From Pseudomonas sp. N3-W (GTDB lineage Bacteria; Pseudomonadota; Gammaproteobacteria; Pseudomonadales; Pseudomonadaceae): 64,000 nt of DNA. This document shows positions 2,877 to 43,294 of the stretch, one piece after another. The notes under the pieces were generated by a model that made no database searches, was not told the origin of the DNA, and saw only the letters and a program-made list of their open reading frames with translations. The translations under genes and the position numbers were made by a program. The stretch's first letter is position 1. Every line of letters begins with the position of its first letter. Location: positions 4,793,001 to 4,857,000 of the forward strand of contig NZ_CP103965.1 in assembly GCF_024970185.1 (NCBI RefSeq). The letters are read 5' to 3'.

Positions 2877-2884
2877 CAATACTT
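2877..2884 (+). promoter_or_regulatory. Putative sigma-S type -10 element of rgsA
   Basis: CAATACTT matches the sigma-S -10 consensus CTATACTT at 7 of 8 positions. A start about 6 nt downstream (near 2890) with the terminator end at 3008 gives an RNA of about 119 nt, the reported size class of RgsA. In P. aeruginosa and P. fluorescens rgsA is known to depend on RpoS. The exact start is inferred. Confidence 0.5.
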
Positions 2885-2889
2885 GAACT

Positions 2890-3008
2890 GTCGGCGGGGC
2901 ATCTCCCCCAAGTGCCGCGCTGATAAAGGTACCAAAGGACCGCGTGCCTTTTGTTTTACTCCTAATGGTCTTAACCCGGATTCACCCCCCAGAACCCGGG
3001 TTTTTTTT
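2890..3008 (+). ncRNA. rgsA: RgsA (P16) small regulatory RNA
   Basis: An orphan intrinsic terminator with no ORF in front of it, between the TetR gene and tatD, marks a small RNA gene. The location next to tatD and the size of about 120 nt match RgsA, the RpoS-dependent, Hfq-binding sRNA linked to oxidative-stress resistance (known family). In P. aeruginosa RgsA has been reported to repress acpP and fis. The sequence supports this here: nt 2951-2968 are identical, apart from one missing base, to the strand complementary to the acpP leader (9432-9450), so RgsA could cover the acpP ribosome site. The 5' end is estimated from the -10 element. Confidence 0.8.
2973..3008 (+). terminator. Intrinsic terminator of rgsA
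   Basis: AACCCGG (2973-2979) pairs with CCGGGTT (2996-3002) around a C-rich 16-nt loop, followed directly by eight T (3001-3008). It ends 10 bp before the convergent tatD stop codon. Confidence 0.85.
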
Positions 3009-3017
3009 GCCTGCGAT

Positions 3018-3803
3018 TCACCCTTTCACATGCGCCAGCGGAAACAATCGCTTGAAGTTCTGCGTCGTCTGCTCGGCAAATCGCTCATAGGATTCGCCGC
3101 GCAGCATTGCCAGAAACTCCGCCACCTCACGTACATACTGCGGCAAATTCGGTTTGCCGCGATACGGGATCGGGGCCAGGTACGGCGAGTCGGTCTCTAC
3201 CAGTAGACGGTCAGCCGGGACTTTACTGGCCACATCGCGCAAGGCGTCGGCATTGCGGAACGTGACAATCCCGGACAGGGAAATGTAATAACCCATGTCC
3301 AGCGCCGCCTTGGCCATGTCCCAGTCTTCGGTAAAGCAATGCAGCACACCGGCCTGGGGAAGCGCTGCGTCACGCAGCAAGGTCAGGGTATCGGCGCGAG
3401 CGCCACGGGTGTGGATGATCACCGGTTTGCCGGTTTGCCGAGCGGCTTGCAGGTGCAGCCGAAACGATTCCTGCTGCAACTCGGCAGCTTCCGGCTCGTA
3501 GTGATAATCCAGGCCGGTTTCACCGATGGCCACGACACGCGGATGATTGAGTTCGCGCAGCAACCAGTCCAGCGCCGGAGCAGCACCCGGCTGCACGTCC
3601 AGCGGATGGACGCCCACCGAACAATCGACGTCGTCGTACCGCTCGGCCAGGGCCTTGACGTCGGCGGCGTTGTCGACACTGACGCCGATACACAGAAAGT
3701 GCCCCACCCCGCGCTGCCGGGCCGCTTCAAGGGCGGCATCCAGAGAGCCATCGTGGGCGGCGAGGTCGAGACGATCAAGGTGACAATGGGAATCTACAAG
3801 CAT
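3018..3803 (-). CDS. tatD: TatD family metal-dependent hydrolase (DNase)
   Basis: A 261-residue TIM-barrel protein of the TatD family, 3'-5' exonucleases/deoxyribonucleases with a two-metal site. Visible metal ligands: HCH in VDSHCHLD (residues 6-8), the Glu of IGETGLDYHY, His in VIIHTRGA, His in GVLHCFTE and Asp in LLVETDSPYLAP. Length is typical (about 260). It resembles the YcfH branch, found beside holB-pilZ in many gamma-proteobacteria. It lies 15 bp after pilZ on the same strand, so it is probably the last gene of the tmk-holB-pilZ-tatD transcription unit. The biological substrate is uncertain. Confidence 0.92.
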   Translation of the reverse strand: MLVDSHCHLDRLDLAAHDGSLDAALEAARQRGVGHFLCIGVSVDNAADVKALAERYDDVDCSVGVHPLDVQPGAAPALDWLLRELNHPRVVAIGETGLDYHYEPEAAELQQESFRLHLQAARQTGKPVIIHTRGARADTLTLLRDAALPQAGVLHCFTEDWDMAKAALDMGYYISLSGIVTFRNADALRDVASKVPADRLLVETDSPYLAPIPYRGKPNLPQYVREVAEFLAMLRGESYERFAEQTTQNFKRLFPLAHVKG

Positions 3804-9191: not shown

Positions 9192-9428
9192 TTAAGCCTG
9201 GTGGTTAGTAACGTAATCGATTGCAGCTTGTACAGTAGTGATCTTCTCAGCTTCTTCGTCAGGGATTTCGGTCTCGAATTCCTCTTCCAGAGCCATCACC
9301 AGCTCAACGGTGTCAAGGGAGTCGGCACCCAGGTCTTCAACGAAGGAAGCAGAGTTAACCACTTCTTCTTCTTTAACGCCCAGTTGCTCGGCAACGATTT
9401 TCTTGACGCGCTCTTCGATGGTGCTCAT
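9192..9428 (-). CDS. acpP: Acyl carrier protein
   Basis: The 78-residue, highly acidic carrier of growing acyl chains. The 4'-phosphopantetheine site is Ser37 in [11 protein letters not shown]. Its leader (9429 to about 9474) contains the ribosome-binding region complementary to RgsA. A promoter is visible upstream, so acpP can be transcribed apart from fabG. Codon use is that of a highly expressed gene. Confidence 0.98.
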
Positions 9429-9431
9429 ACC

Positions 9432-9450
9432 TTGTTTTCACTCCTAATGG
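9432..9450 (-). promoter_or_regulatory. Predicted RgsA binding site on the acpP leader
   Basis: In the acpP mRNA this stretch includes an AGGAG. Its complement on the plus strand is ACTCCTAATGG (9440-9450) and TTGTTTT (9432-9438). Both blocks recur contiguously in rgsA at 2951-2968, with C9439 the only extra base. Pairing would therefore be 11 bp plus 7 bp with a single bulge, covering the ribosome site. Repression of acpP by RgsA is reported in P. aeruginosa; the duplex here is read from sequence. Confidence 0.75.
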
Positions 9451-16767: not shown

Positions 16768-17403
16768 CGCCGCCAAAAGCGGCCTGGCCAGCGGACTAAC
16801 GGTCAAAAACCGGCCCTGACCAACGCAATTCACCAGGACGCGAGGCCGTCCTACGGGGCTTTCGCTACGTAACGGTGGAGTTTGCAGCTGTAACAAGCGC
16901 AGGTGACATGAGGCCTGAATCAAACCGCAAGGCAGAGTTTTCACTCGTTTTGCGCGCCAATATTCACGGCCAGTTCACAAAGTGCAGTCAGTTGCGAATG
17001 ACCCCGAGCGAACGCTTCGGAAACAACGCCTAAATTAGCCATGATGCGTGACCTCCCCTTTCGGAGCTCACGGTAAATGCCAACCCGCTGCGGATTCTGC
17101 GCGCGGCAGCACCCGAATTATCAGGGATACGTGTAGGGTGGAGATGCACAACCGCTGGACTGTGTAGCAATAGGCTTCATCAAGACGCTTCATCTCGTCC
17201 ACAGCCGCTGGTTGATTCCTCCTCCTGACTGAGTGCTTAAGTAGCCACAGCAAGCAGGACGCGTACGTCGCAACACCAGCCCAATTGGTTGGGGTTCGCT
17301 AGACACTGGAGTGTCCAACCACTCCTGACGCACCTGACACCGACCGTGAGAAGTCGTGTGTGCCGAACGCCGTTTCCGGCAGCCCGGAAACCGACGGTAC
17401 TAC
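16768..17403 (+). ncRNA. Long structured 5' leader of rne
   Basis: This 636-nt stretch has no convincing ORF but many hairpins: GCCGC/GCGGC at 16769-16783, AGGAC/GTCCT at 16834-16852, and a perfect 8-bp stem GTTTCCGG/CCGGAAAC with a 4-nt loop at 17373-17392, only 11 nt before the rne ATG. RNase E is known to regulate its own mRNA through 5'-leader structures in E. coli, and a separate motif (rne-II) has been described for Pseudomonas. Whether this leader is that motif needs a covariance-model search. Confidence 0.55.
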
Positions 17404-42880: not shown

Positions 42881-42956
<76 letters not shown>

Positions 42957-42959
42957 AAA

Positions 42960-43035
42960 TGGCGTCCCCTAGGGGACTCGAACCCCTGTTACCGCCGTGA
43001 AAGGGCGGTGTCCTAGGCCACTAGACGAAGGGGAC
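42960..43035 (-). tRNA. tRNA-Glu (TTC)
   Basis: A 76-nt tRNA starting GTCCCCTTCGTCTAGTGG, anticodon TTC (CTTTCAC), T-loop GTTCGAATC, encoded CCA. It is 3 bp upstream of tRNA-Gly in transcription order and identical to the copy at 43219-43294. Confidence 0.98.
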
Positions 43036-43140
43036 ACGCTAACTGAAACACATGGTGTGTATTTCAGTGCCCAAATACGCATCCGAAGATGGCGTTTCTG
43101 GTTTCACTCAGTGCTGCCCGAAAGCAACACTGTTTAAAAT

Positions 43141-43216
<76 letters not shown>

Positions 43217-43218
43217 AA

Positions 43219-43294
43219 TGGCGTCCCCTAGGGGACTCGAACCCCTGTTACCGCCGTGAAAGGGCGGTGTCCTAGGCCACTAGACGAAGGGGAC
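43219..43294 (-). tRNA. tRNA-Glu (TTC), second copy
   Basis: Identical to the tRNA at 42960-43035. First tRNA of the cluster, transcribed from the promoter at 43357-43385. Confidence 0.98.

What the first reader, a model, noticed from the sequence alone, without database searches (positions are those of the whole stretch)
2951..2968. RgsA can mask the acpP ribosome-binding site encoded 6.5 kb away
Plus-strand TTGTTTT+ACTCCTAATGG in rgsA (2951-2968) recurs at 9432-9450 with a single inserted C (9439), and there it is the strand complementary to the acpP leader. The RNA duplex would be 18 bp with one bulge across the acpP AGGAG. It independently supports both the RgsA call and a direct link from the RpoS stress response to fatty-acid synthesis.
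Basis: partly seen in the sequence, partly recalled or inferred. Interest (0 to 1): 0.75.

Follow-up and report, generated by a model that had tools for sequence, protein, structure and literature searches.

The report
Small RNA blocks acpP start (known)
A stress-induced small RNA in this Pseudomonas genome can pair with, and so block, the ribosome landing site of a fatty-acid-making gene; the same link was already reported in a related species, so the finding is correct but not new.

Summary
RgsA is a real Rfam hit (179.8 bits, cut-off 88.4), and its 11-mer ACTCCTAATGG occurs only at these two places in the 6.67-Mb genome. Hfq-dependent repression of acpP by RgsA pairing was published for P. 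aeruginosa (Lu et al. 2016, PMID 27381272; seen here only through citing papers). So: already known.

What I add is its limits. (1) In 60 rgsA-acpP pairs of the genus the RgsA core is invariant, and acpP is the strongest of nine leaders tested (mean -26.0 against -9.5 to -15.6 kcal/mol). (2) There is no co-variation. (3) The full acpP complement also stands in a family member (G161) where I found no RgsA, so the match does not independently prove RgsA. (4) RgsA-like RNAs with the same core occur in other families of the order, including Ketobacter-type genomes whose acpP leaders do not pair beyond the Shine-Dalgarno. acpP thus looks like a lineage-specific target laid on an older anti-Shine-Dalgarno core. 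pal (oprL) and four other genes of this genome carry near-matches before their starts.

The parts
2890..3008 (+). rgsA transcript (predicted ends), about 120 nt
   Evidence: Rfam RF00628 at 2805-2999, 179.8 bits. The Rfam model includes about 87 nt upstream of the start (passage of PMC3709562); size 120 nt and start deduced from the RpoS -10 (passage of PMC2375449). The start in this genome is inferred.
2877..2883 (+). CAATACT, probable RpoS-type -10 element of rgsA
   Evidence: Resembles the published consensus (T/G)CTATACT; own reading. An RpoS gene is in the genome (TIGR02394, 459.1 bits).
2958..2968 (+). RgsA core ACTCCTAATGG that pairs with the acpP leader
   Evidence: Mostly unpaired in the predicted fold of 2890-3009; opening cost 1.0 kcal/mol. 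Identical in 60 of 60 genus pairs, as part of ACTCCTAATGGTCTT.
2951..2957 (+). RgsA extension TTGTTTT
   Evidence: Not well conserved: 27 of 60 genus sequences.
2974..3008 (+). RgsA terminator hairpin and T run
   Evidence: Sequence; fold.
9192..9428 (-). acpP, acyl carrier protein (78 aa)
   Evidence: ORF; PF00550 59.5 bits.
9432..9450 (-). acpP leader stretch CCATTAGGAGTGAAAACAA that pairs with RgsA; its G opposite 9439 is bulged
   Evidence: duplex; opening cost about 6 kcal/mol.
9441..9445 (-). AGGAG Shine-Dalgarno of acpP, 12 nt before the start codon
   Evidence: Sequence.

Best explanation
rgsA makes an RpoS-dependent, Hfq-binding small RNA whose exposed linker ACUCCUAAUGG pairs with CCAUUAGGAGU over the acpP Shine-Dalgarno, helped in this species by UUGUUUU/AAAACAA. 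In stationary phase or stress this would block ribosome loading on acpP mRNA and lower acyl carrier protein. Shown here: sequences, energies, conservation. Shown elsewhere, in P. aeruginosa: RpoS and Hfq dependence and acpP repression. Inferred: that it acts in this species at these bases. Across the wider order acpP looks like a target added on top of an older, general anti-Shine-Dalgarno core.
For: Exact complement; RgsA Rfam hit and RpoS gene. Core invariant in 60 of 60 genus pairs; UAGGAGU in 59 of 60 acpP leaders and the full CCATTAGGAGT in 34 of 60. Mean duplex -26.0 kcal/mol against -9.5 to -15.6 for eight neighbouring leaders. Mean z -4.1 against leaders shuffled around a fixed Shine-Dalgarno; at most 2 of 200 shuffles reach it in 48 of 60. 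Published acpP repression needing RgsA 71-77 and Hfq (passages); counted from 2890 here, 71-77 is TCCTAAT, and from 2888 ACTCCTA. Hfq CLIP peak at the RgsA 3' end (passage).
Against: No co-variation: cognate pairs -26.01 against -25.86 for swapped ones, 813 of 5000 permutations as low. The extension is not conserved (27 of 60). The leader motif persists without detected RgsA (TAGGAGT in 13 of 16 leaders, full complement in G161). Eight genus genomes of 60 have the duplex at -20.0 or weaker among the ten weakest listed, down to -16.2. In one genome a holB leader reaches -27.0. Nothing was measured in this organism.
Confidence: 0.85

Rival explanations
1. Mostly a by-product: RgsA carries a generic anti-Shine-Dalgarno core kept for other mRNAs, and acpP has an independently conserved strong leader. 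Pairing can happen but is not what selection maintains in acpP.
For: Full complement in G161 without detected RgsA and TAGGAGTGAAAACAAG in 5 of 16 RgsA-less leaders; no co-variation; core kept outside the family while acpP pairing is lost; 6 of 11 sites with up to one mismatch in this genome lie before an ORF start.
Against: In the genus the complement reaches well beyond the Shine-Dalgarno; acpP repression by pairing is published for P. aeruginosa (passages).
Confidence: 0.12
2. Chance resemblance of two short strings.
For: An 11-mer is expected about three times in a genome of this size on both strands, by simple calculation, and the backwards control occurs once.
Against: It falls on a Shine-Dalgarno, carries a 7-nt extension, and strong pairing recurs in the genus, unlike eight neighbouring leaders.
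Confidence: 0.03

Closest known systems
RgsA repression of fis and acpP in P. aeruginosa (Lu et al. 2016, PMID 27381272; paper not held, known here from passages in citing papers)
   Same: Same sRNA family, same target gene, pairing with the mRNA, RpoS and Hfq dependence as reported there.
   Different: Other species.
RgsA/P16 of P. fluorescens CHA0 and P. syringae DC3000 (PMC2375449, PMC3709562; passages only)
   Same: Same RNA, RpoS control, role in peroxide resistance; P. syringae RNA reported to interact with Hfq.
   Different: In the passages I saw, no acpP target is named for these species.
Hfq-dependent sRNAs that mask Shine-Dalgarno sequences (for example RyhB on sodB, described in a passage of PMC2375449)
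   Same: Block of ribosome access by pairing.
   Different: Different RNA, inducer and regulon.

Membership tests
RgsA (Rfam RF00628) | Match to the covariance model above the gathering score | tested here: met
   179.8 bits against 88.4, full model 1-194; the only match in the genome.
RgsA (Rfam RF00628) | Place next to tatD | tested here: met
   tatD-like ORF 3018-3803 minus directly downstream; tatD neighbour described in a passage of PMC2375449.
RgsA (Rfam RF00628) | RpoS-dependent promoter | tested here: inconclusive
   CAATACT at 2877-2883 resembles the consensus, and an RpoS gene is present; dependence not measurable here.
RgsA-acpP regulation | Complementarity to the acpP ribosome-binding site | tested here: met
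RgsA-acpP regulation | Co-variation of the two partners across species | tested here: not met
   The RgsA core never varies in 60 of 60 genus pairs, and cognate pairs are no stronger than swapped ones. This feature is not required for membership.
RgsA-acpP regulation | Hfq dependence; regulation restored by compensatory mutations | not testable with these tools
   Needs the bench; the 2016 paper is not held.

The most novel reading that the evidence does not exclude
RgsA is an ancient, probably RpoS-driven sRNA of the whole order, with a near-invariant anti-Shine-Dalgarno core ACUCCUA(A/U)UGGUCUU that serves older targets still unknown. Strong acpP pairing was gained mainly in the Pseudomonas lineage. 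In this genome pal (oprL) is a candidate further target: its leader UCAUUAGGAGU fits the core by 10 pairs plus one G-U.
Probability: 0.5. Interest if true: 0.5.

Novelty: already known. Interest (0 to 1): 0.25.

Why it matters
The link from RpoS stress control to fatty-acid synthesis through RgsA is published. The comparison adds that the pairing is strong across the genus, is not needed to explain the acpP leader by itself, and appears younger than RgsA. That points to older targets of a very conserved core, which can be sought by comparing leaders across families.

Tried and rejected
Chance match: judged unlikely.

Co-evolution of the partners as proof: tested, not found.

Compensatory change in genomes with the ACTCCTATTGG core: the acpP leaders of G382 and G358 fit their own core better in energy than the A-core. 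But G370, G381, G341 and G346, with the A-core, have leaders that would also fit the T-core better, and 9 Ketobacter-type genomes show no excess pairing. No compensatory pattern is claimed.

Conservation of the pal site: not tested. Twenty stretches guessed by position in seven relatives held no pal or gcvH gene.

Corrected on checking: I first counted 4 of 11 near-match sites before a start; a recount gives 6 of 11.

First alignment A1 had G370 on the wrong strand and was replaced by A2. The consensus fold of A2 is weak (-6.4 kcal/mol); 8 of 14 predicted pairs have a sequence with both sides changed. A2 leaves out the genomes with altered cores (G342, G368, G391) and also G365, G353, G382, G358 and G341.

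Rows dropped or shifted: L054 has no acpP (contig end). L069's leader was trimmed by 3 nt for a misplaced start. The starts of L038, L039 and L166 are uncertain. G150 and G153 gave no core by my pattern. Of the 18 family genomes without RgsA, acpP leaders were read in 16 (not G213, G229) and the acpP-to-tatD region in 15 (not G213, G221, G229). L319 (Pelagibacteraceae) looks like a chance pattern hit; its genome gave no acpP.

Full report
What is there. The two strings are as described: 2951-2968 TTGTTTTACTCCTAATGG and 9432-9450 with one extra C at 9439. The first lies in RgsA, an Rfam hit of 179.8 bits at 2805-2999 against a cut-off of 88.4, the only match in the genome. The model includes the promoter region (passage of PMC3709562); the transcript should start near 2890, after CAATACT, judging by the published RpoS -10 consensus and the 120-nt size (passages of PMC2375449). 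The second lies opposite the leader of acpP (9192-9428, minus). The mRNA reads CCAUUAGGAGUGAAAACAAGGUAUG, so the duplex covers the AGGAG.

Is it chance. ACTCCTAATGG occurs exactly twice in the 6,674,931-bp genome, both strands; its backwards control once. The number alone proves little. With up to one mismatch there are 12 sites against 96 for the control. Leaving out rgsA itself, 6 of these 11 sites lie 4-12 nt before the start of an ORF of 78 aa or more: acpP, pal (OmpA-family lipoprotein; the name pal is my reading), gcvH (PF01597), a putative porin (PF16930), a short-chain dehydrogenase (PF00106) and a fimbrial protein (PF00419). This enrichment is partly expected, since the motif contains a Shine-Dalgarno. 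The acpP tile ranks 9th of 143,780 overlapping tiles of a sampled 864 kb, 5th as a site including RgsA's own complement. It is lower than all of 500 roughly predicted Shine-Dalgarno starts, a set that missed acpP itself. The core costs 1.0 kcal/mol to open, the acpP leader about 6.

Conservation. RgsA is found in 149 of 149 genus genomes and in 180 of 198 genomes, 14 of 19 genera, sampled from the family. I fetched 60 rgsA-to-acpP regions of the 148 other genus genomes: the 39 with the weakest RgsA scores and 21 others. acpP was found in 59 of 60, at 6.2-9.0 kb from rgsA. With the window that makes 60 pairs. ACTCCTAATGGTCTT is identical in 60 of 60 RgsA sequences; TAGGAGT stands in 59 of 60 acpP leaders, CCATTAGGAGT in 34 of 60; RgsA TTGTTTT in 27 of 60. 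The predicted duplex averages -26.0 kcal/mol (range -16.2 to -30.4), against averages of -9.5 to -15.6 for the leaders of tatD, pilZ, holB, tmk, mltG, fabF, fabG and fabD in the same loci (n 25 to 60 each); single control leaders reach -27.0 (holB) and -23.0 (fabD). Against leaders shuffled around a fixed Shine-Dalgarno the mean z is -4.1, and in 48 of 60 at most 2 of 200 shuffles reach the real value; in other genera of the family z is -0.5 to -3.1 in the 8 of 10 that could be scored.

Results against a simple reading. Cognate pairs bind no better than swapped ones (813 of 5000 permutations as low). Eighteen of 198 family genomes have no RgsA match, and with laxer filters only weak ones (best E 0.006, while 8 of 14 unrelated control genomes also give matches at E<=1). 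In the 15 whose acpP-to-tatD region I fetched, tatD is there in 15 of 15, and ACTCCTAA appears nowhere except opposite acpP itself. Yet of 16 such acpP leaders 13 keep TAGGAGT, 5 keep TAGGAGTGAAAACAAG, and one, G161, keeps the whole CCATTAGGAGTGAAAACAAGG. The leader is therefore not kept by RgsA alone, and the match cannot serve as independent proof of RgsA. A displaced, very divergent RgsA in those genomes is not excluded.

Wider view. Among 27 genomes of other families of the order, 12 have an RgsA match at E<=0.01, one of them above the cut-off (106.8 bits); 1 of 14 distant control genomes also matched at that loose level, so the weakest may be chance. Of these 12, 7 have the core ACTCCTAATGGTCTT, 2 the T form ACTCCTATTGGTCTT, and 3 (G342, G368, G391) altered forms; all 12 have a C-rich stretch before a T run after the core, and a sequence like AATACTT or ATACTT upstream in most (own reading). 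Three (G365, G382, G342) lie 5.5-6.8 kb from acpP on the same contig, as in Pseudomonas; next to three others (G370, G381, G368) a homologue of the window's tetR neighbour is found. In an alignment of 14 diverse members, chosen by me and without the altered cores, ACTCCTA(A/T)TGGTCTT is otherwise invariant. acpP leaders in these other families mostly do not pair beyond the Shine-Dalgarno: z of -2.3 or lower in 4 of 12, and in 0 of 9 T-form genomes of the Ketobacter type (z -1.1 to 1.2). RgsA thus seems older than its strong pairing with acpP.

Literature. Lu et al. 2016 (Mol Microbiol 102:244) reported RgsA repression of fis and acpP; the paper is not held. I saw passages only: PMC9308961 (base pairing; region 71-77 needed, and 141-175; Hfq required), PMC8395346 (Hfq-dependent inhibition of fis and acpP translation), PMC5686131 (base pairing with acpP1 mRNA), PMC7154689 (Lu et al. 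cited as a success of comparative target prediction), PMC6890931 (Hfq peak at the RgsA 3' end) and PMC6215814 (RgsA lowers RpoS, without evidence of pairing). For RgsA outside Pseudomonas, listings (15 of 620 shown) gave one paper, PMC6755748, whose passage mentions RgsA of Azotobacter vinelandii in oxidative stress. I found none placing it outside that family, in an open-licence library only.

Verdict. Observation confirmed; interpretation supported, with the independence claim set aside; already known. The part worth following is the age, and the unknown older target, of the RgsA core.

Noticed in passing
L299-L303, L304-L310, L315-L318, L320, L322-L325: RgsA-like RNAs in other families of the order, including Ketobacter-type genomes, with the core ACTCCTA(A/T)TGGTCTT, C-rich loops and a terminator.
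   Followed up: partly
L201:1000-1511 minus (own genome, near 5170214): pal (oprL)-like gene whose leader TCATTAGGAGTTTCACGATG fits the RgsA core by 10 pairs plus one G-U; predicted -19.2 kcal/mol with 2945-2976.
   Followed up: partly
L200, L194, L196, L198 (own genome): gcvH, a putative porin, a short-chain dehydrogenase and a fimbrial gene whose Shine-Dalgarno regions match the RgsA complement with one mismatch.
   Followed up: partly
L203 near 1840, minus (own genome): fis leader GACGGAGAAGGGGTGGCCGCATG; a whole-RgsA duplex is predicted at -33.8 kcal/mol, not over the same core only. fis is a published RgsA target in P. aeruginosa.
   Followed up: no
2957 in the window against L223-L224, L299-L302: Many RgsA outside this genus have CACTCC where this genus mostly has TACTCC or similar; the acpP complement also has CACTCC. 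The bulge at 9439 thus reflects a base lost or changed on the RgsA side.
   Followed up: no
17127-17394 +: rne-II 5' element of the ribonuclease E gene, 262.6 bits.
   Followed up: no
42884-43294 -: A pair of tRNA genes present twice in a row with identical scores.
   Followed up: no
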